Positions 13,168-21,521 of a stretch of DNA of 64,000 nt are shown here, piece after piece. Source of the stretch: Solirubrobacterales bacterium. Lineage in GTDB: Bacteria; Actinomycetota; Thermoleophilia; Solirubrobacterales; 70-9. Each line of letters starts with the position of its first letter. The stretch's first letter is position 1. Location of the stretch: assembly GCA_023958085.1 (NCBI GenBank), contig JAMLGI010000002.1:1-64000 (forward strand), written 5' to 3'. The position numbers were made by a program, and so were the translations under genes. Under the pieces are notes generated by a model. That model was given only the letters and a program-made list of their open reading frames with translations. It made no database searches and was not told the origin of the DNA.

Positions 13168-14981
13168 GTCCGGGCGGAAGGGACCGGCGGCGCAAGCTGA
13201 CCTGGGTTCTTGGCCTGCTGCGGCCGTACCGTGCCCGGCTGGTCTGGATGTTCCTGGCGGTGCTGGCCTCCACCGGTTCTGCTCTACTGCCGCCCTGGCT
13301 GGCCGGCCGGGCGATCGACGTCGGCATCGTTCCCGGCGACACGACCGCCCTCGGCCTGACCGTTCTCGCCTTCGCGCTTGCGATCACGGTCAACGCCGCG
13401 ACCTCCTGGCTGCAGACCTGGCTGGTCGGGTGGGTCGGGATCCGGGTGCTGCAGGACCTGCGAGAACAGGTTTTTCAACACGTTCAGCGGATGTCCGTCG
13501 GGTTCTTCAGTCGGACCCATCCCGGCACCGTGATCTCACGGATGACCAACGACATCGAGGCGCTGAACCAACTGATCAGTGACGGCATAGTCACCCTGTT
13601 CGGGAACCTGCTCACCCTGGTCGGGGTGGTCGCGATCATGGTTGCCCTCGACTGGCGTCTCGCCCTGATCACCTTCACCGTCCTTCCGCTGCTGGCCTTG
13701 ACCAGCATGGTCTTCCGCCACTACTCGACCGGTGCCTTCCGGCGAACCCGGGAACGGATCGCCCAGGTGACCGCCTACCTGCAGGAGACCCTGAGCGGCG
13801 TCCGTGCGGTCCGTTCCTTCGGCCAGGAGGAACGGCATCTGGTCCGGATGACCGAGCTCAATCAGCTCAACCGCGAAGCCAACATGGCGACCGTGTACCT
13901 GAACGCCAGCTACTTCCCGGCGACCGAGCTTCTGACCGCGGTCGGGACCGCGACGATCCTGATCTTCGGTGGCTGGCAGGCGATCGAGGGCAACATCATG
14001 ATCGGGGTGGTCGTTTCCTTCATCGGGTACCTCAACCTGTTCTTTGACCCGGTTCAGCAGCTGGCCCAGCTCTACGCCACCTACCAGCAGGGAATGGCCG
14101 CGCTGGACAAGATCTTCGAGCTGCTCGACACCGAAGCCGAGATCGTCGATCTGCCCGAAGCGGTCACCCCGGAGGACATCGAGGGACGGGTCGGGTTCGA
14201 CCGGGTCTCCTTCAGCTACGCCAGGGAGGCCGGGCGACCCGACGGTCCCTGGGCGGTCGAGGAGATCGACCTCGAGATCTCCCCCGGAGAGACCGTCGCG
14301 TTGGTCGGCGCGACCGGCGCCGGCAAGTCCACCCTGGCGAAACTGGTCACCCGTTTCCACGACCCGCAGCGCGGGGTGGTCCGGATCGACGGCCGGCCGC
14401 TGCCGGAATGGAATCAGCGAGGAGTGCGGCGTCTGATGGGAATCGTGCCCCAGGAAGGCTTCCTGTTCTCGGGCACGATCGCCGAGAACATCGCCTTCGG
14501 TCGGCCCGACGCGGACCGCGGTGAGATTGAGGCGGCGGCAGCCACGGTCGGGGTGGATCAGTTCGTCGCCAATCTGCCCGATGGCCTCGACACCGAGGTC
14601 GGGGAACGCGGAATCCAGCTTTCATCCGGCCAGAGGCAGCTGGTCGCCTTTGCCCGGGTGGTCCTGGCCCGACCGCGCCTGCTGGTCCTCGATGAGGCCA
14701 CCTCGGCCGTCGATACCCGTACCGAACGAATCATCGAGCGGGCCCTGGCCACCGCCCTGAGCGGACGCACCGCAATCGTTATCGCTCATCGCCTGTCGAC
14801 GATTCAGCGGGCCGACCGGATCGTGGTTCTCGATCACGGACGGATCGTCGAGAGCGGCCCCCACGATGAACTGATCCGGTCAGGCGGAGCGTACGCCCGA
14901 CTCCACGGGTCCTGGGTCGGTGCGACCGAAGACCGCGGCTCAGCCGGGTCCGATGCCGCCGGTGCCGGAACCGCCGGATGA
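13164..14981 (+). CDS. ABC exporter half-transporter with canonical ATP site (TM288-like)
   Basis: A 605-residue partner of the preceding gene, with ATGA overlap. The transmembrane domain (LLPPWLAGRAIDVGIVPG, FFSRTHPGTVISRMTNDIEA) is followed by Walker A GATGAGKST and Walker B LLVLDEATSAVD with the catalytic Glu. The signature is IQLSSGQRQ and the H-loop IAHRLSTIQ. With the first subunit, the consensus site would combine this Walker A/B with the canonical LSGGQ of the partner, and the other site would be degenerate. That is the layout of TM287/288-type heterodimers. Its 3' end overlaps the convergent lipoprotein gene by 42 bases. Confidence 0.9.
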   Translation: MSPGGRDRRRKLTWVLGLLRPYRARLVWMFLAVLASTGSALLPPWLAGRAIDVGIVPGDTTALGLTVLAFALAITVNAATSWLQTWLVGWVGIRVLQDLREQVFQHVQRMSVGFFSRTHPGTVISRMTNDIEALNQLISDGIVTLFGNLLTLVGVVAIMVALDWRLALITFTVLPLLALTSMVFRHYSTGAFRRTRERIAQVTAYLQETLSGVRAVRSFGQEERHLVRMTELNQLNREANMATVYLNASYFPATELLTAVGTATILIFGGWQAIEGNIMIGVVVSFIGYLNLFFDPVQQLAQLYATYQQGMAALDKIFELLDTEAEIVDLPEAVTPEDIEGRVGFDRVSFSYAREAGRPDGPWAVEEIDLEISPGETVALVGATGAGKSTLAKLVTRFHDPQRGVVRIDGRPLPEWNQRGVRRLMGIVPQEGFLFSGTIAENIAFGRPDADRGEIEAAAATVGVDQFVANLPDGLDTEVGERGIQLSSGQRQLVAFARVVLARPRLLVLDEATSAVDTRTERIIERALATALSGRTAIVIAHRLSTIQRADRIVVLDHGRIVESGPHDELIRSGGAYARLHGSWVGATEDRGSAGSDAAGAGTAG

Positions 14982-15608
14982 GCCGCCGGAACCGCCCGCG
15001 GGCGGGGCGGCGCCACCGGTGTCCGGCGCGTCGGGGGTAACCCCGCCGGTGTCCGGCGCCGGGGCGGGAGCCGGAGCGGGAGTCGTCTCCGGAGCCGGCG
15101 CTTCGTAGGTCGATCCGGCATCCGGCGTTTCCGAAGGAACCGTTCCGGTGTCGCTGCCGGTGCTCACCGGCGCCGAGGGACCGTCGGCGCAGTCGGTGAA
15201 GCCGTATGCGCCGGCAGCCTCCTGGAAGGTCGCCGGGTCGGTGCTGCCGCTGGCCGGATCGGCGAGATCGTTGAGGGCGGCGATCACCTCCTCCGGGGCC
15301 GGACCGTCATCGGGGGTACCCAGTTTCTCGAGGCGTTCAGCCAGACTGCGGTAGAACCCGGCGACCTGTTCGGCCTTGTCGCTCTCCGCGGTGGTGGTGC
15401 TTGCCTGGAGCGCCCCGATCGCCGCGTTGACCTCAGCGCAGATCGCATCGCCCTCACTGATCAGATCTGCCTTGCTCAGGCTCACCGGTTCGGTTGTCGG
15501 AGCCGGAGCCGGTGCCGGCTCCGAATCGCTGCCACCGCAACCGGAAAACCCGACCATCGCCAGGGCGACCAGAAGCACAGCCGGAGAGAGACTTTTCAGG
15601 GTAGGCAC
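14940..15608 (-). CDS. Lipoprotein with Ala/Pro/Gly-rich tail
   Basis: 222 residues from GTG 15608, chosen because TACCTT lies seven bases upstream; a TTG three codons earlier is less likely. LSPAVLLVALAMVGFSGCGG is a signal peptide ending in a lipobox (FSGC). A helical region follows (EGDAICAEVNAAIGALQAST, AEQVAGFYRSLAERLEKL) with paired cysteines (AICAEV and TDCADG). The last 80 residues are Pro/Ala/Gly/Thr-rich with PAPAPAPAP runs, probably a wall-spanning spacer. Similar helical Cys-containing lipoproteins are common in actinobacteria and have no known function. Confidence 0.7.
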   Translation of the reverse strand: MPTLKSLSPAVLLVALAMVGFSGCGGSDSEPAPAPAPTTEPVSLSKADLISEGDAICAEVNAAIGALQASTTTAESDKAEQVAGFYRSLAERLEKLGTPDDGPAPEEVIAALNDLADPASGSTDPATFQEAAGAYGFTDCADGPSAPVSTGSDTGTVPSETPDAGSTYEAPAPETTPAPAPAPAPDTGGVTPDAPDTGGAAPPAGGSGGSSGGSGTGGIGPG

Positions 15609-15615
15609 GCAAATC

Positions 15616-15621
15616 AAGGTA
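15616..15621 (-). promoter_or_regulatory. -10 box TACCTT for leaderless lipoprotein mRNA
   Basis: TACCTT, then seven bases, then GTG at 15608 on the reverse strand. Confidence 0.45.
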
Positions 15622-15808: not shown

Positions 15809-16465
15809 TCAGGCTCCGAAAACCCTTCGCAGTTCCTCTTCGCGTTCGGGATCCAGCACCGCGAGGACGTCGTCGTCGACCTGAAGTTTCGAGTCGGCGT
15901 TCGGGACGAAGCCGTGCCCCGACCGGATGATCGAGATCAGCAGCGTGTGATCCGGAATCTCGATCTCGGCGATCGTCCGTCCGGCGACCGGTGAGTTCTC
16001 CCCCACCCGCATCTCGACGATCTCGATCTCCTCGGCTTCAAGATCCAGCAGCCGGACCAGGCTGCGTTGGGGAACCTCGTGTTCGAGCAGGCGCAGGATC
16101 GCGTCGGTGGCCGAGACCACCGGCTTGATTCCGAGCAGATCGAAGTGCTGGCGATTGTTCGGGTTGTTGGCCCGGGCGATGATCCGCCCGACCCCGTACT
16201 TGTCCCGCGCGACCTGGCAGATCAGGATGTTGTCCTCGTCGTCGCCGGTGACCGCGATCACCAGGTCGGCCCGCTCGATGCCGGCACGTTCGAGGACCCA
16301 GAGCTCGGAGCCATCGCCGTAAAGAACCCGGTGTTCAAGCAGCTGCTCGACCCCGAGATAGCGATGACGGTTCGACTCGATCAGGGTGACCTCGTGACCC
16401 TGACCGACCAGCTCCCGGGTCAGGTTGAATCCGACCTTCCCGGCACCGATCACGACCACATACAT
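15809..16465 (-). CDS. trkA: TrkA-family potassium-uptake regulatory protein (ceoC-like)
   Basis: A 218-residue RCK protein. MYVVVIGAGKVGFNLTREL is the NAD-binding TrkA_N motif; VIAVTGDDEDNILICQVARD and RIIARANNPNNRQHFDLLGI continue it. The C-terminal part (LEAEEIEIVEMRVGENSPVA, then GHGFVPNADSKLQVDDDVLA) is a TrkA_C domain, which in this family binds ligands such as c-di-AMP or nucleotides. The start overlaps the previous TrkA stop by one base (TGATG). With the upstream gene it forms a pair like mycobacterial ceoB/ceoC, also next to an APC-type permease. It should gate K+ or other cation transport at the membrane. Confidence 0.85.
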   Translation of the reverse strand: MYVVVIGAGKVGFNLTRELVGQGHEVTLIESNRHRYLGVEQLLEHRVLYGDGSELWVLERAGIERADLVIAVTGDDEDNILICQVARDKYGVGRIIARANNPNNRQHFDLLGIKPVVSATDAILRLLEHEVPQRSLVRLLDLEAEEIEIVEMRVGENSPVAGRTIAEIEIPDHTLLISIIRSGHGFVPNADSKLQVDDDVLAVLDPEREEELRRVFGA

Positions 16466-16908
16466 CAGCTTCCACCCGTCTTGCCGGCGGCCCGGTGAAG
16501 GCCGTCTTCGAGCATCTCGATCGCAACCCGGGTCGGGCAGATGATCTCGAGACCCTGCTCGCGGTACCACTCGGCCCGCCACGGATCGAGGATCCGGGCG
16601 ATCACCGTGTCCACCTGGTAGCGCTTCCGGGCGATCTGGGAGATCACGATGTTGGTGTTGTCGCCGTTGGTAGCGGCGACGAAGGCGTCCGCCCGTTCGA
16701 TCCCGGCAACCTCGAGGGCTCCGGACTCAAGCGCCGCCCCGACCGTGAAGGTCCCCCCGGCCTCCTCCCACGACTGCTCCATGTCCAGCTCAAGGCGGGC
16801 ATGGGATTCGGGGTCCTGGTCGAGACAGGAGACGGTGTGGCCCTCCGAGAGCATCGACCGGGCCAGACCCGACCCCACTCTCCCGCAGCCGACGATCAGT
16901 ACGAACAT
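16465..16908 (-). CDS. TrkA_N-only regulatory protein (ceoB-like)
   Basis: 147 residues. FVLIVGCGRVGSGLARSMLS is the Rossmann glycine motif and LDQDPESH ends with the ribose-binding acid. AFVAATNGDNTNIVISQIAR and VIARILDPWRAEWYREQGL are typical TrkA_N. There is no TrkA_C domain, unlike the next gene, so the two may form a mixed assembly. The ATG at 16908 is favoured over 16917 because TAGGAT sits seven bases before it, which would make the first ATG part of the promoter. Together with the downstream trkA it lies 46 bp after the APC-Usp permease operon. Confidence 0.8.
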   Translation of the reverse strand: MFVLIVGCGRVGSGLARSMLSEGHTVSCLDQDPESHARLELDMEQSWEEAGGTFTVGAALESGALEVAGIERADAFVAATNGDNTNIVISQIARKRYQVDTVIARILDPWRAEWYREQGLEIICPTRVAIEMLEDGLHRAAGKTGGS

Positions 16909-16915
16909 CGGCCGC

Positions 16916-16921
16916 ATCCTA
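16916..16921 (-). promoter_or_regulatory. -10 box TAGGAT for leaderless trkA pair
   Basis: TAGGAT, then seven bases (gcggccg), then ATG 16908. It gives the two TrkA genes their own promoter within the reverse-strand block. Confidence 0.45.
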
Positions 16922-16954
16922 GATCATTCACTCCCGGTTTCCCACCGCGGGACA

Positions 16955-18877
16955 TCAGGCCGGTGGTGCGGTCAGGATCACGCGACAGGGCGCCCGCTTC
17001 AAAACGTATGCGGTCACGGGGCCGATCTCCGGCGGCCGGTAGTCGCCCTTCCCGCCCAACTGTGCCCCACCCTTGACCGGACTCGGCGGCTCCGCCCCCA
17101 TCACTATCGCATCTGCCTCAAGCAGCCTTGCGGTCGCCACGATTCCGGTGCCCTGCCGACGAACCCGGCGACGCTCAACCGTCACCTTCACCCCTCCGTA
17201 TTCGGACGCGACCTCGAACGCACGCTCGGCCGCGGTGGCGGCGGCCCGCTCCTCGGCCGCCGGCAGCGGGTCCTCGATCGCCCGCTTCAGGGGGACCTCA
17301 CTCAACTGGACGATCACCAGTTCCGCGCTGGTCCCGCCTGGCCGGTCATCGGTCTCGGCAGCCATCCGGCCGGCGGTGGAGACGATGTCATCATCGAGCG
17401 GGGTGCCGAAGATCGGGACCAGGATGCGACGGAACGCGACCGCGGGACGACGGCGGACGAGATCCTTCGCCTCGACCGTGAAGCGTTCGGTAAGGCTGAT
17501 TCCCTCCACTGCCCGCCGGTAGACCACATACCCGACCAGGCCGACCGTGAGCCAGGCCAGCCCGACCCAGCGGGCGGTGTCGTGAAGCAGAATCACCGAG
17601 AGCAGGGCCAGACCCGAAAGCAGGGCGCCGAGCGCCGCCGAGACCGGGAATCCACCCGGTCCGCGGTTCAGGTTGAGCGGAGCCCGGAACGGTCGAGCGG
17701 CATCCGGCATCTTCCGGCGCAGCCGGATGATCGAGAGATGGCCGATCGTGATCGCCAGGGTGGCTCCGAAGGCGTAGATTCCGGCCAGCATCTCGATGTC
17801 TCCGGTCACGGCCAGCCCGAGGGCGATCAGGGCGCAGATCACGATCGCCCGGTAGGGAGTCTCGTACCGGGTGTCGAGCTTCGCCAGCCAGCTCGGAATC
17901 TGCCGGTTGACGGCAAGCGCGTAGACGTGGCGGGACACCCCGAACATCGCTGTGTTGGCCGCCCAGATCAGGGTCCCCGAGGCGATCACCGCGACCAGAA
18001 TCTGCAAAGTATCGGCGATCCATTCAGGCCGGAACGCCTCCACGACGCCGAGGATCGGGGCCTCGATGTAGGTCGACCCGAGGGCGGTTTCGGGTCCGGA
18101 CGGTCCCGCGGCGACCGGAACCGCCATCAACGCCACCGCGGCGATCAGCGCGTAGAGCACCGGCACCAGCCAGATCGCCCGGGTGACCACCCGGGTGAAG
18201 CGCTTCGCGTTCAGGTCGAGGTCCGGCACGAGGTTGGCCATCGCCTCGATCCCGGCATAGGCGAGAGTAGCCAGAACGACCGAGTAGATCAGGTCCTCGA
18301 CCCCGGGGCCACCGGCCAGTCCCAGCGATCCGGTCAGGGCGTCCGGGTTCATCACGACCGCCACCCCGACCAGCAGGATCAGTAGCTGGACCAGCAGATC
18401 CGCACCGGCCAGAACCATGATGAACCGGGGCCGGCGACGGGCCGTGATGTCGAGCCAGTTGAGGGCAGTTGCATAGAGAATCACCGCAGCGATCACCACT
18501 GCCGCCCAGACCCGATCGCCCAGGTCACCGAAGATCGGGGTCAGATAGTGCGGAACCGAGAGCGCCGCCAGGGCGATCACGATCAGGTAGTCGAGCAGGA
18601 TCACCCAGCCGGCGACGAAGGCGACCAGCTCGTTGAAGGCGTGGCGGGCATACGAGGATGACCCTCCCCGTTCTCGCAGCATCGCGCTGCCCTCGAGGTA
18701 GGAGGCCACGGTCAGGACAAACAGCACCCCGGCGGCAAGGAAGATCAGCGGGGTGTACGCGAGGCCACGCTTCGCAACCACGCCGAGCGAGAAGTAGATC
18801 GAGAATCCGACCCCGGCGTAGGCCAGGACAAGCAGCCAGAGCCCGCTCGATCGCTGCGGTCCGCCCGGCAGTTTCAC
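16955..18877 (-). CDS. APC-superfamily permease with C-terminal Usp-like domain (copy 2)
   Basis: A 640-residue protein. The first ~450 residues hold about 12 transmembrane helices (GLWLLVLAYAGVGFSIYFSL, SSSYARHAFNELVAFVAGWV, YSVVLATLAYAGIEAMANLV). The last ~150 residues are a soluble Usp-like domain (AFRRILVPIFGTPLDDDIVS, AELVIVQLSEVPLKRA, LEADAIVMGAEPPS, VLKRAPCRVILTAPPA). The GTG start overlaps the stop of the small membrane gene (GTGA). Substrates in this superfamily are amino acids or, in KimA-type members, K+. Two TrkA genes downstream favour a cation role, but this is inference. It is a paralogue of the permease at 19068-21005. Confidence 0.82.
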   Translation of the reverse strand: MKLPGGPQRSSGLWLLVLAYAGVGFSIYFSLGVVAKRGLAYTPLIFLAAGVLFVLTVASYLEGSAMLRERGGSSSYARHAFNELVAFVAGWVILLDYLIVIALAALSVPHYLTPIFGDLGDRVWAAVVIAAVILYATALNWLDITARRRPRFIMVLAGADLLVQLLILLVGVAVVMNPDALTGSLGLAGGPGVEDLIYSVVLATLAYAGIEAMANLVPDLDLNAKRFTRVVTRAIWLVPVLYALIAAVALMAVPVAAGPSGPETALGSTYIEAPILGVVEAFRPEWIADTLQILVAVIASGTLIWAANTAMFGVSRHVYALAVNRQIPSWLAKLDTRYETPYRAIVICALIALGLAVTGDIEMLAGIYAFGATLAITIGHLSIIRLRRKMPDAARPFRAPLNLNRGPGGFPVSAALGALLSGLALLSVILLHDTARWVGLAWLTVGLVGYVVYRRAVEGISLTERFTVEAKDLVRRRPAVAFRRILVPIFGTPLDDDIVSTAGRMAAETDDRPGGTSAELVIVQLSEVPLKRAIEDPLPAAEERAAATAAERAFEVASEYGGVKVTVERRRVRRQGTGIVATARLLEADAIVMGAEPPSPVKGGAQLGGKGDYRPPEIGPVTAYVLKRAPCRVILTAPPA

Positions 18878-19071
18878 CGGTCCCGTCCGATCCGCCGCTG
18901 GACCACGGTTCGCCCGATCCCCACCGCGATGAAGGCGACTCCCAGGAGGACACCGATCGAGAGCGGTCCGCCGCCACGAGTCAGAGTGAGTACAAGAATC
19001 AGGGCACCGATCCCGACGTACACCGCCGAGATCACGCGTACCGTTCGGTCGTATGCCCCACCGCGCTTCAT
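18874..19071 (-). CDS. Small two-helix membrane protein between the permeases
   Basis: 65 residues: TVRVISAVYVGIGALILVLT and LSIGVLLGVAFIAVGIGRTV are two transmembrane helices, flanked by basic ends (MKRGG and RRIGRDR). The ATG overlaps the stop of the upstream permease (ATGA), and its own stop overlaps the GTG of the downstream one (GTGA). The tight coupling on both sides suggests it is made in step with both transporters, possibly as a small subunit. No family was recognised. Confidence 0.7.
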   Translation of the reverse strand: MKRGGAYDRTVRVISAVYVGIGALILVLTLTRGGGPLSIGVLLGVAFIAVGIGRTVVQRRIGRDR

Positions 19072-21005
19072 CTGCCGACCGCCGGTTCGGGGAGTCCGGC
19101 TCCGACGGCGGCGGCGTTCACCCCGGGAGCCGAGAGCTCGCTGCCGCTGTCGCCGGTGACCACGATGACCCGGCACGGACGCTCCCGCATCAGCACCTCC
19201 AGAGTGTGACCGTAGTGGGGGGCTCCCCCTCGGGATTCGAGTCCGAGCACAACCGCCTCGGCCTTCAGCTTCCGCGCCGCCCGGGCCAGGAAATACCCTT
19301 CCTCCCCGGGGCGCACCCGTTCGACCCGTCCGGTGATCCGGGTGCCGGCGATCATCCGGGCCCGTTCGATCTTTTCCCGGGCGAGTCGTTCCTCCGATTT
19401 CATCGCCCCGTCGAGGGGCAGGTTCGGCGGCACGGTCAAGAGCGCAACGATGTGAATCGCCCGGCTCTGACTCGAGGTCAACTTCGAGGCGGTGGCGATC
19501 AGGTCCGGTGAGAAAGGCTGGTCGGCCGGCAGCGCGACCAGAACCGAGCGGTACTCGATCTCCTCCACCCCGAGGGGTTCCGGCAGAACCACCTTCACGG
19601 TCCTGGTGACCGGCAGCTTCTGGTGGCGTCGGTAGAGCAGGTAGCCGACCACGCCGATCACCAGCCAGCTGGACCCGACCGTCAGGGTGATCGGGTTGAG
19701 GACCATCACGATAACCCAGGCTGCCGCGGTCCCGATCCCGCCCAGCACCGCGGTCATCGGCAGCTCGTGGCTTCCGAGTTTCAGGTTCATCGGGGGCTTC
19801 CACGGGCGCTCGACCTCGGACCGGCTCCAGCGCAGCCGGATCACCGCGGCATGGGCGATCGTGAACGAGAGCATCGCCCCGAAGGCGTACATGGTCGCCA
19901 GGAATGAGGCCTGGCCGGGCAGCATGGTGATCGTGGCGATACAGGCAAAGGTGACGATCGCAATCCAGGGGGTGCGGTAGCGAGGATGGATCCGGCGAAT
20001 CGATTCCGGGAGCTGTCGGTGCTGGCCCATCGAGTAGCTCAGCCGGGAGACTCCGATCAGTCCGGCGTTGGTCGCGACGATCAAGATGATCCCGGCGAAA
20101 CTGCCGACGTAGATGTTGAGGATCGAGGTCAGCCCCGGCGGGAGACCGAGTCCCTGGACGATCCCCAGCATCGGATCATCCGCGTACCTGCTTCCCAGCT
20201 CGGTGAACCAGGTGCCGTCAGCCGCCTGGGTGACCGGCATCGCCGAGAGTGCAACGACCGGAATGAAGAGGTAGAGCGCCATCACCACCAGGACCGTCAG
20301 GCCGACGCCCCGGGGCACGGTTCGGGCGGCATCCCGAGCCTCCTCCGACATGTTCGAGATCGTCTCGATCCCGGTGTAGGCGATCATTCCGACCGCCACG
20401 CCGAGGGCGAAGTCGCCCCAGGTCGGGGCCACACCGAGATGAATGTTCGAAATCAGGATGTCGGTGTTGAAGACCAGCAGGAACCCGACCGCGACCAGTA
20501 CCAGCTGGGTTATCACGTCGGCCACCGCCAGCACCGTGTTGAGCCGGGCGGACTCCTGGCCGCCCCGCACGTTGATCACGGCGAGCCCGCCGATGATCGC
20601 CGCGGCGGCGATCACGTCGTACGGGGACTCGGCCAGGGGCGGCCAGATCGCCGCGAAGTAGTGCGGCACGAAGTAGGACGAGATCGCAACCGTGATCGTG
20701 TAGTTCAACATCTGGCCCCAGGCGGCGATGAAGCTGACCAGCTCGTTGAAGGCGTGGCGGGCGAAGGACGAGGACCCGCCGGCCTCCGGGTACATCACCG
20801 TCGCCTCGGCGTAGGTGGCAGCCGTGAAGATGAAGATCACCCCGGCGAGAATGAAGGCCAGGGGCGTCAACCCGAGAGCGAACGCGGCGGTGACCCCGAG
20901 CGCGTAGTAGATCGATGAGCCGACGTTGCCGTACGCCGCCGAGAACAGCGCCCCGGTGCCGTAGATCCGGCTGAGGCTCTGATCCCGCGGAATCCGCTCA
21001 GCCAA
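19068..21005 (-). CDS. APC-superfamily permease with C-terminal Usp-like domain (copy 1)
   Basis: A 645-residue protein with the same design as the permease at 16955-18877. Matching landmarks are GSSSFARHAFNELVSFIAAW (the other copy has GSSSYARHAFNELVAFVAGW), VAVGMIAYTGIETISNMSEE and a C-terminal Usp domain (EYRSVLVALPADQPFSPDLI, AIHIVALLTVPPNLPLDGA, LKAEAVVLGLESRGG, ERPCRVIVVTGDSG). The TTG start is eight bases after a GGAG. It begins 18 bases after the ferredoxin-like-domain gene at 21024-21521, so it probably belongs to the same transcript. Confidence 0.82.
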   Translation of the reverse strand: MAERIPRDQSLSRIYGTGALFSAAYGNVGSSIYYALGVTAAFALGLTPLAFILAGVIFIFTAATYAEATVMYPEAGGSSSFARHAFNELVSFIAAWGQMLNYTITVAISSYFVPHYFAAIWPPLAESPYDVIAAAAIIGGLAVINVRGGQESARLNTVLAVADVITQLVLVAVGFLLVFNTDILISNIHLGVAPTWGDFALGVAVGMIAYTGIETISNMSEEARDAARTVPRGVGLTVLVVMALYLFIPVVALSAMPVTQAADGTWFTELGSRYADDPMLGIVQGLGLPPGLTSILNIYVGSFAGIILIVATNAGLIGVSRLSYSMGQHRQLPESIRRIHPRYRTPWIAIVTFACIATITMLPGQASFLATMYAFGAMLSFTIAHAAVIRLRWSRSEVERPWKPPMNLKLGSHELPMTAVLGGIGTAAAWVIVMVLNPITLTVGSSWLVIGVVGYLLYRRHQKLPVTRTVKVVLPEPLGVEEIEYRSVLVALPADQPFSPDLIATASKLTSSQSRAIHIVALLTVPPNLPLDGAMKSEERLAREKIERARMIAGTRITGRVERVRPGEEGYFLARAARKLKAEAVVLGLESRGGAPHYGHTLEVLMRERPCRVIVVTGDSGSELSAPGVNAAAVGAGLPEPAVGR

Positions 21006-21023: not shown

Positions 21024-21521
21024 TCATGCCCGGGCGGGCGGGCGCCAGGCCGGTCGGAGCGAGATCACCAGCTCACGTTCGGAGCTTGAGGTCACATCGA
21101 AGTTGACCGGAAGCGAGCTGCGGAGCGGCTCGACCAGATCGTTCCCCGACTCCAGCTCGAGTTCGAACCGAACCTCATCATCGGCCCGGGTGACCTCCAC
21201 CATTCGACGCACCGGGGGGAGCCCGCGGAGGCTGGTCTCGGCGACTGCGGCCATGGCCAGTTCCGCCACCGGGGAAACCACCACCCGGAACGGCTTGGTC
21301 TCCCCGCCGGGTCCGGCGGTGACCGGCCGGCGAGCGGGATCCGCGGTGGTCACAGCACTGGCAGCCGGGCCCGCGGGACCCAGCGCCTCTACCGCAAGTC
21401 CCAGCCGTGAGACCCGGTCGGTCAGGGTCTCGACGTCGCGGGCAAGTACCGAAACCGCCCGGCGAAGCTCCTCCACCCCGGCGGGATCGACTGCCGGCTG
21501 GTCTGAGGCCGCGTCTTCCAT
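21024..21521 (-). CDS. Coiled-coil protein with C-terminal ferredoxin-like domain (paralogue of 30247-30756)
   Basis: 165 residues. The N-terminus (VEELRRAVSVLARDVETLTD, RVSRLGLAVEALG) is a predicted coiled coil. An Ala/Pro linker follows, then an 80-residue domain beginning FRVVVSPVAELAMAAVAETS and ending LPVNFDVTSSSERELVISL. Its predicted beta-alpha-beta-beta-alpha-beta order suggests a ferredoxin-like fold. The same layout and similar sequence recur in 30247-30756 (IRVIVRPLRDLSLARAVESS ... LPVAFDVTDSDDRSVTIAL). No known family was recognised. One copy heads the glycosyltransferase operon and the other precedes the permeases, so it may be an adaptor or sensory module. Confidence 0.65.
   Translation of the reverse strand: MEDAASDQPAVDPAGVEELRRAVSVLARDVETLTDRVSRLGLAVEALGPAGPAASAVTTADPARRPVTAGPGGETKPFRVVVSPVAELAMAAVAETSLRGLPPVRRMVEVTRADDEVRFELELESGNDLVEPLRSSLPVNFDVTSSSERELVISLRPAWRPPARA

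What the first reader, a model, noticed from the sequence alone, without database searches (positions are those of the whole stretch)
15809..21005. Duplicated APC-Usp permease with a 65-residue partner and two TrkA proteins
Seen: two paralogous ~640-residue permeases with C-terminal Usp domains, a small two-helix protein coupled to both by NTGA overlaps, then a TrkA_N-only and a TrkA_N/TrkA_C protein. Known: mycobacteria place ceoB/ceoC beside an APC-type permease, and KimA K+ importers are APC proteins with a cytosolic regulatory domain. Inference: a cation (K+) transport system gated by RCK and Usp nucleotide sensors, with the small protein as a possible subunit.
Basis: partly seen in the sequence, partly recalled or inferred. 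Interest (0 to 1): 0.6.

Follow-up and report, generated by a model that had tools for sequence, protein, structure and literature searches.

The report
Probable KimA-like potassium importer operon
Five adjacent genes in an actinobacterium most likely make a potassium importer of a little-known kind, standing in for known importers that were not found in its draft genome.

Summary
Five tightly packed minus-strand genes encode permease APC1, a 65-residue two-helix protein, permease APC2, a TrkA_N-only protein and a TrkA_N/TrkA_C protein. In the nearest relatives, 53 of 59 loci with enough flank have all four partners after APC1. The small gene is real (dN/dS 0.21-0.54).

K+ transport is the best reading. 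APC1 keeps six KimA site residues in 35 of 36 sequences; none of 23 amino-acid APC permeases has more than two. TrkH, Kup, KdpA and KimA were not found in the window's draft genome. In the order, KimA occurs in 3 of 3 sampled genomes without APC1 but 1 of 30 with it. TrkH lies beside these permeases in one sister family, and some other actinobacteria have KimA beside a TrkA pair.

It is not simply a KimA. The essential TM1 aspartate is asparagine in 35 of 36, the cytosolic domain is Usp-like, and the permeases form their own clade. APC2 lost much of the site; a heteromeric importer with a degenerate partner is plausible but unproven. Usp nucleotide sensing lacks motif support.

The parts
19068..21005 (-). 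APC1: APC-fold permease with C-terminal Usp-like domain; proposed transporting subunit
   Evidence: KimA-type site residues Y33, T104, S108, T210, E213, N217, Y372 and N26 in place of KimA D36 (numbering from Ala2); AlphaFold model pLDDT 86.9. GGAG 8 nt upstream of the TTG start.
18874..19071 (-). 65-residue two-helix membrane protein (helices by eye), 4-nt overlaps with both permease genes
   Evidence: conserved between APC1 and APC2; dN/dS 0.21-0.54 against 8 relatives.
16955..18877 (-). APC2: paralogous APC-fold permease with C-terminal Usp domain; site partly lost, D96 and E211 kept
   Evidence: AlphaFold model pLDDT 84.2.
16465..16917 (-). TrkA_N-only (RCK nucleotide-binding half) protein, 150 aa
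   Evidence: invariant G10, G12, G15 and GDNTN (residues 85-89) in 19 rows.
15809..16465 (-). TrkA_N/TrkA_C (complete RCK) protein, 218 aa
   Evidence: invariant G7, G9, G12, E30 in 17 rows.

Best explanation
The five genes form one K+ uptake system. APC1 is a proton-coupled K+ importer of the APC superfamily. Its site is built like that of KimA and Kup: T104, S108 (TM3), T210, E213 (TM6), Y372 (TM10) and Y33 (TM1), with E213 as proton carrier and with Asn26 where KimA and Kup have Asp. APC2 is a paralogue that keeps two acidic positions (D96, E211) but has lost much of the ion site; it most likely partners APC1. The 65-residue protein is encoded between them and probably helps them assemble. 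The two TrkA proteins form an RCK complex that senses nucleotide and opens or closes the permease pair from the cytosol. In this lineage the system takes the place of KimA. Shown: gene order, conservation, site residues, no other known importer found, and the KimA/APC1 exclusion in the order. Inferred: K+ as substrate, proton coupling, pairing of APC1 with APC2, the small protein's role, and RCK gating.
For: 1. Residues: the six positions matching KimA T121, S125, T230, E233, N237, Y377 are all present in 11 of 11 KimA-like and 35 of 36 APC1 proteins; Kup has 4 of 6 in 6 of 6; of 23 amino-acid APCs, 6 have none, 16 have one and 1 has two. KimA numbering checked on the 6s3k sequence. TM1 reads YGNVGSSIYYAL in APC1 and (Y/F)GDIGTS in six class Kup proteins, YGDIGTSPLYAI in L169. 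2. Ten site positions of APC1 average 0.96 identity against 0.67 for the rest of the membrane domain, reached by 0 of 20000 random sets. 3. The window's genome gave no TrkH, Kup, KdpA or KimA match; 16 of the 30 genomes of the order with APC1, the window's own included, lack all four. 4. KimA is in 3 of 3 genomes of the order without APC1 and 1 of 30 with it, Fisher p 0.0007. 5. TrkH lies 1.2 to 3.0 kb from an APC1- or APC2-type permease in 9 of the 11 f7 genomes that have both genes; a channel-like gene with a TrkA-like stretch lies downstream of the cassette in G124. 6. Outside the class the TrkA pair stands beside KimA in 5 of 25 loci. 7. In f9 (L059, L072, L073) one full-site permease stands alone with the TrkA pair. 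8. In the window's genome the two cassette TrkA proteins are the only stand-alone ones with strong hits, and no TrkH was found for them to serve.
Against: KimA D36N abolishes K+ uptake (PMC6994465, passages), and the matching residue is Asn in 35 of 36 APC1 sequences. Two of the six residues are weak markers: KimA T230A grows like wild type, although T230 coordinates K+ in the later structure, and S125 does not coordinate it. Overall APC1 scores better with CAT-type amino-acid transporters (96.6 bits) than with KimA (46.6 bits). Adjacency to TrkH was seen in f7 only: 9 of 40 genomes class-wide that have both. KimA and APC1 coexist in G136 and in f9 genomes G018, G060 and G094. The genome has three Ion_trans_2 matches, so channel-mediated K+ entry is possible, and it is a draft, 95% complete. 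The class-wide link between lacking TrkH/Kup/KdpA and having an APC1-type gene is modest (38 of 51 v 53 of 98, p 0.02), 13 of those 51 have no APC1-type gene, and genomes are not independent. No transport was measured.
Confidence: 0.7

Rival explanations
1. The permeases carry an amino acid or another organic solute, and the TrkA proteins link that uptake to the cell's K+ or energy state.
For: Best whole-length sequence scores are to amino-acid transporters of CAT, LAT and related types; Pfam names the fold AA_permease_2.
Against: None of 23 amino-acid APCs has more than two of six KimA site residues, APC1 has all six in 35 of 36; the glycine common at position 30 in amino-acid APCs (14 of 24 rows) is Ser in 36 of 36 APC1; the tree sets APC1/APC2 apart from the amino-acid rows (98*); exclusion with KimA in the order.
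Confidence: 0.15
2. The permeases move another cation (for example ammonium or a polyamine) or carry K+ outward, as an efflux or K+/H+ exchange system.
For: Asn in place of the essential TM1 Asp changes the charge of the site; K+ channels in the genome could serve uptake.
Against: 16 of 30 genomes of the order with APC1, the window's own included, gave no match to any of the four importer families tested; the proton-coupling Glu is kept in 35 of 36.
Confidence: 0.12
3. APC2 is an independent transporter with its own substrate, not a partner of APC1 (compatible with K+ transport by APC1).
For: In f7 the APC2-type gene with the TrkA pair can stand apart from APC1 (G117: L067 and L068); APC2 keeps D96 in 26 of 27 and E211 in 27 of 27.
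Against: 4-nt overlaps in the window, and APC1 and APC2 side by side in 17 of 20 fetched f1-f4 loci, the others being solo APC1-type genes (hand count); site positions little more conserved than background (0.715 v 0.557, 283 of 20000 random sets; in the second alignment 0.716 v 0.613, 1655 of 20000).
Confidence: 0.4

Closest known systems
KimA (KUP-family K+/H+ symporter, B. subtilis; PDB 6s3k, 8b70, 8b71)
   Same: APC fold with C-terminal cytosolic alpha/beta domain; T121, S125, T230, E233, N237, Y377 conserved; KimA-like genes stand beside TrkA pairs in some other Actinomycetota
   Different: TM1 Asp is Asn; cytosolic domain is Usp-like by sequence, KimA's is described as PPAT-like (PMC10284832, passages); separate clade; two paralogues plus a small protein
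Kup (PF02705)
   Same: TM1 motif (Y/F)G(D/N)(I/V)G(T/S)S...Y; T, S, T, E at four site positions
   Different: Asp of the motif replaced; no K_trans match to APC1; Y372 and N217 not shared with the six Kup proteins
Mycobacterial CeoB/CeoC (TrkA-type K+ uptake proteins)
   Same: A pair of TrkA-type proteins; literature treats CeoBC as a K+ uptake system (PMC12136442, start of abstract; PMC13163235, start of abstract)
   Different: No TrkH or permease partner is mentioned in these two papers (term search); the first TrkA here lacks TrkA_C. Sequence relation to CeoBC was not tested.
Cation-chloride cotransporters (NKCC1, KCC)
   Same: APC fold with large C-terminal domain; structural matches that extend into that domain, at large rmsd; KCC4 K+ site uses TM1 Asn, TM3 Tyr, TM6 Thr (PMC11994965, passages), residues that APC1 also has in those helices
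   Different: Residue-level equivalence not established; no match in the PDB sequence searches, only a weak NCBIfam hit (TIGR00930, E 1.3e-4, 20 bits against a cut-off of 953)
CAT/LAT-type amino-acid transporters (GkApcT 5oqt, BasC 6f2g)
   Same: Best whole-length sequence score and good fit of the membrane domain
   Different: Substrate-site residues differ from those of the amino-acid APCs compared; the solved chains align to the membrane part only

Membership tests
KUP/KimA K+/H+ symporters | Acidic residue in broken TM1 (KimA D36, Kup D23) | tested here: not met
   Asn in 35 of 36, Asp in 1; placed by ungapped match with Kup, because MAFFT misplaces KimA TM1; equivalence of Kup D23 and KimA D36 from PMC6994465
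KUP/KimA K+/H+ symporters | TM3 Thr and Ser (T121, S125) | tested here: met
   36 of 36 each
KUP/KimA K+/H+ symporters | TM6 Thr and proton-coupling Glu (T230, E233) | tested here: met
   36 of 36 and 35 of 36
KUP/KimA K+/H+ symporters | TM10 gate Tyr (Y377, KimA branch) | tested here: met
   36 of 36; KimA-like 11 of 11; Kup 0 of 6
KUP/KimA K+/H+ symporters | TM3 acid (D117) | tested here: not met
   N 25, D 7, V 3, T 1 of 36; Asn in the window
KUP/KimA K+/H+ symporters | Falls inside the Kup plus KimA branch of the tree | tested here: not met
   APC1+APC2 form one group (98*) apart from Kup plus KimA and from amino-acid rows; deep joins unsure
KUP/KimA K+/H+ symporters | c-di-AMP-binding cytosolic domain | not testable with these tools
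   Domain is Usp-like by sequence; DAC genes present in 24 of 24 genomes searched
KUP/KimA K+/H+ symporters | K+ uptake | not testable with these tools
   needs an assay
Amino-acid APC transporters | G-(S/T/A)-G motif in TM1 (recalled) | tested here: not met
   GSS in 36 of 36; Gly at the last position in 14 of 24 rows labelled amino-acid, one of which is a KimA
Trk/Ktr RCK regulators | TrkA_N (and TrkA_C) domains with GxGxxG | tested here: met
   the first protein has no TrkA_C
Trk/Ktr systems | TrkH/KtrB membrane partner | tested here: not met
   no PF02386 match in the window's genome or the other 9 f1 genomes
ATP-binding Usp proteins | G-x2-G-x8..13-G-(S/T) motif (recalled, range widened) | tested here: not met
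   1 of 36, 1 of 48, 2 of 27, 3 of 49 members
Cation-chloride cotransporters | K+ site N/I in TM1, Y in TM3, P/T in TM6 | tested here: inconclusive
   Asn, Tyr and Thr present in the same helices, but no residue-level structural alignment was available

The most novel reading that the evidence does not exclude
A heteromeric K+ importer: a transporting APC subunit with a KUP-type site whose essential TM1 Asp has become Asn, paired with a site-degenerate APC paralogue and a two-helix third subunit, and gated by an RCK pair of the kind that elsewhere serves TrkH. It replaced KimA in most sampled Solirubrobacterales.
Probability: 0.35. Interest if true: 0.7.

Novelty: new variant of a known kind. 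Interest (0 to 1): 0.52.

Why it matters
If true, many members of an actinobacterial class import K+ through an APC subfamily that my paper searches did not find described; a K+ site can work with Asn in TM1; and RCK proteins, known as gates of channels and TrkH, also control secondary transporters. It would also suggest what orphan TrkA pairs such as CeoBC act on: KimA-like permeases. These points can be tested with a few expression constructs.

Tried and rejected
Amino-acid permease reading: considered because whole-length scores favour it; put second after the residue comparison and the exclusion with KimA.

KimA membership: rejected as a filing, because the TM1 Asp, the TM3 Asp and the clade were tested and not met. 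The six residues in the comparison were fixed after I had compared the motifs by eye (note). D36 and D117 were left out of the six because they differ, Y43 because MAFFT does not align KimA TM1; counting all nine KimA positions that I listed, APC1 of the window matches seven (Y43 through Kup).

Usp as ATP sensor: motif search mostly negative. c-di-AMP: cyclase genes are present, nothing more.

Structural proof of the ion site: the models gave no coordinates to measure. The DSSP string does not show a break in APC1 TM6. Foldseek and VIA-align show only the shared fold; KimA (8b71: Z 41.9, rmsd 13.8 over 507) stands only 1.5 above an amino-acid transporter that matches the membrane part alone (3gia: Z 40.4, rmsd 2.6 over 411).

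Small protein: no Pfam or NCBIfam family (best DUF4345, E 0.11; none); not folded.

Other searches: the phylum-wide search with the APC1 profile gave matches only in the window's own class (8 of 149 genomes at E 1e-60; of the 13 genomes of the class in the printed part of the list, 8 matched; 121 genomes without a match were not printed). Paper searches listed no paper on this cassette; (three of Solirubrobacterales, Thermoleophilia, potassium uptake, TrkA, APC family) returned 0. I read only the listed rows and starts of abstracts, so absence from print is claimed only for these searches.

Labels and hand work: one row first labelled amino-acid (L203) proved to be a KimA and was moved before the counts; still carry the old label. 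One APC2 row (L060) groups with APC1 in the tree and is counted among the 27 APC2 rows; one APC2 row has six of six, which I take to be L060 but did not print. Kup counts use the 21 genomes with hits over 500 bits; the tally (27 over cut-off) includes six more genomes whose 26-36 bit hits are KimA-like proteins. The presence lists and the places were typed by hand; their totals for TrkH (71), APC1 (91) and KdpA (36) agree with the tallies of those calls.
Full report
What is there. Five genes on the minus strand, 21005 to 15809, run without gaps larger than 37 nt: APC1, a 65-codon gene, APC2, a TrkA_N-only gene and a TrkA_N/TrkA_C gene. The start codon of the small gene overlaps the APC1 stop (ATGA), that of APC2 overlaps the small gene's stop (GTGA), and the two TrkA genes meet at TGATG. 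Pfam confirms the domains, APC1's Usp domain only below its cut-off; the profile of APC1 relatives finds solved Usp proteins at E 6e-10. The window belongs to a 2.44 Mb, 31-contig, 95% complete draft genome. Its nearest named relatives by APC1 are records titled Solirubrobacterales, an order of the class Thermoleophilia, Actinomycetota, so I take that to be its order. Families of the sampled genomes are known only as f1 (the window's own), f2, and so on. APC1 residues are numbered from Ala2.

It is conserved. Homologues of APC1 occur in 91 of 149 genomes of the class at E 1e-40; this counts the permease, not the cassette. One search kept the best 80 of 557 named loci. Of these 80, 59 have at least 3.9 kb after APC1, and 53 of the 59 have the small gene, APC2, TrkA_N and TrkA_NC; the six others are L082, L103, L113, L121, L133, L139. 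Among 39 loci fetched from the class, chosen to include solo copies, 19 have all five genes with the small gene in the middle (hand count). The small gene was found in 73 of 77 named loci with room for it, and its codons evolve under constraint: dN/dS 0.21-0.54 against eight relatives, third positions most variable. Variants tell more. In f9 (L059, L072, L073) a single permease with the full site precedes the TrkA pair. In f6 (L060, L061) a weakly matching small gene lies before the first permease, and both permeases group with APC1. Solo APC1-type genes without TrkA exist (L041, L056-L058, L062, L067, L069). In 149 genomes sampled across the phylum, matches at E 1e-60 were confined to this class (8 genomes).

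What it carries. KimA numbering was verified on the 6s3k sequence and the functional residues taken from PMC6994465 and PMC10284832 (passages found by term). APC1 has T104, S108, T210, E213, N217 and Y372 where KimA has T121, S125, T230, E233, N237 and Y377. All six occur in 35 of 36 APC1 proteins (the last has five), in 11 of 11 KimA-like proteins of the class, four of six in 6 of 6 Kup proteins, and at most two in 23 amino-acid APCs. TM1 is invariant, YGxVGSSIYYALG in 36 of 36, with Asn at x in 35 and Asp in one. It lines up without gaps with the Kup motif (YGDIGTSPLYAI in L169, FGDIGTS in the other five), so Asn26 takes the place of Kup D23, which PMC6994465 equates with KimA D36. This is the chief objection, since KimA D36N is dead. 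KCC4, however, coordinates K+ with an Asn in TM1, a Tyr in TM3 and a Thr in TM6 (PMC11994965, passages), so Asn at a K+ site of this fold has a precedent; whether the positions coincide in space was not shown. APC2 has mostly Val (22 of 27) and often Ala (13 of 27) at the two TM3 positions and varied residues in TM1, yet keeps D96 (26 of 27) and E211 (27 of 27). The site of APC1 is far more conserved than its membrane background (0.964 v 0.672; 0 of 20000 random sets), that of APC2 much less so (0.715 v 0.557, 283 of 20000; in the second alignment 0.716 v 0.613, 1655 of 20000).

Genome context. TrkH, Kup, KdpA and KimA were not found in the window's genome. Of 33 genomes of the order sampled, its own included, 30 have an APC1-type gene and 16 of those 30 lack all four importers. 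The three without APC1 all have KimA and Kdp, while of the 30 with it one has KimA and five have Kdp (p 0.0007 and 0.01; genomes are related, so p is only a guide). A KimA-profile hit in G118 is at the place of an APC1-type gene and was not counted. Class-wide, 38 of 51 genomes without TrkH, Kup and KdpA have an APC1-type gene, against 53 of 98 with one of them (p 0.02); KimA was not searched class-wide. In f7, TrkH lies 1.2 to 3.0 kb from an APC1- or APC2-type permease in 9 of 11 genomes that have both (not G057, G075); over the class it is 9 of 40. In G124 a gene with a channel pore and a TrkA-like stretch follows the cassette. Outside the class the same kind of TrkA pair stands next to KimA in 5 of 25 loci, three times in one direction with it; the other 20 showed no KimA within their short flanks. 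The window's genome has five TrkA_N matches: the cassette pair, one in one frame with a channel pore at C1:245 kb, and two weak ones. So the cassette's TrkA pair has no TrkH to serve, and the permeases beside it are the natural target. The genome has three Ion_trans_2 matches, a possible other route for K+.

Phylogeny and fold. APC1 and APC2 form one group (98*), apart from 23 amino-acid rows and from Kup plus KimA; long branches make the deep joins unsure. Whole-length sequence scores favour CAT-type transporters. Models (pLDDT 86.9 and 84.2) match the APC fold; in the listed rows KimA and NKCC/KCC/NCC are the matches that extend over the cytosolic domain, with large rmsd, which I put down to differing domain placement.

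How it most likely works. APC1 imports K+ with a proton carried by E213; APC2 and the small protein complete the membrane complex; the TrkA pair, by analogy with RCK proteins of TrkH, switches it in response to a nucleotide. Residues, gene order and importer inventory are shown; substrate, coupling, complex and gating are inferred. The Usp domains carry the classic ATP motif in few members, so their ligand, if any, is unknown; c-di-AMP is possible, since its cyclase is present in 24 of 24 genomes searched and a Usp domain binds it in KdpD (PMC4686210, title and start of abstract only).

Compared with what is known. It works like KimA but is not filed as one: two acidic site residues, the clade and the cytosolic domain differ. 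It resembles CeoBC in having a TrkA pair; two recent papers on CeoBC hold no mention of TrkH, Rv2690c or a permease (term search). Literature searches listed no description of the cassette. I call it a new variant of a known kind.

Noticed in passing
L251:2536-3108 (G168, same phylum, outside the class): A 190-aa ORF with one membrane stretch (by eye) and a Usp domain 43% identical to that of an APC1 sits directly before a TrkA_N/TrkA_NC pair; no KimA or APC1-type membrane domain was matched in the 9 kb. The Usp module may be a TrkA partner in its own right.
   Followed up: partly
L046:9861-10898 (G124): A gene with a K+ channel pore match (PF07885) and a TrkA-like stretch lies 1.2 kb downstream of the cassette.
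   Followed up: partly
L066:1693-3021 with G106:C248:182-1513, and L068:1697-3025 with G117:C8:21018-22313: A full-length TrkA-like gene next to TrkH stands divergent to the cassette in these two f7 genomes, so two TrkA systems share one locus.
   Followed up: partly
L001 (G000:C22), 515-1417 and 1414-2874: An ordinary amino-acid APC permease of the window's genome overlaps a 300-aa gene that looks like a Usp protein by eye, again pairing APC with Usp.
   Followed up: no
window 21024-21521, minus strand: A 165-aa gene with no Pfam or NCBIfam match ends 18 nt before APC1; relatives were found upstream of APC1 only in near kin (L075, L077-L081).
   Followed up: no
window 14940-15617, minus strand: A 225-aa lipoprotein-like gene (by eye) with no Pfam match follows the cassette; relatives of it occur 3' of the cassette in a number of loci, at varying distance.
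   Followed up: no
G010:C75:12962-16686: Two KimA genes in tandem in an f8 genome, a parallel to the APC1/APC2 tandem.
   Followed up: no
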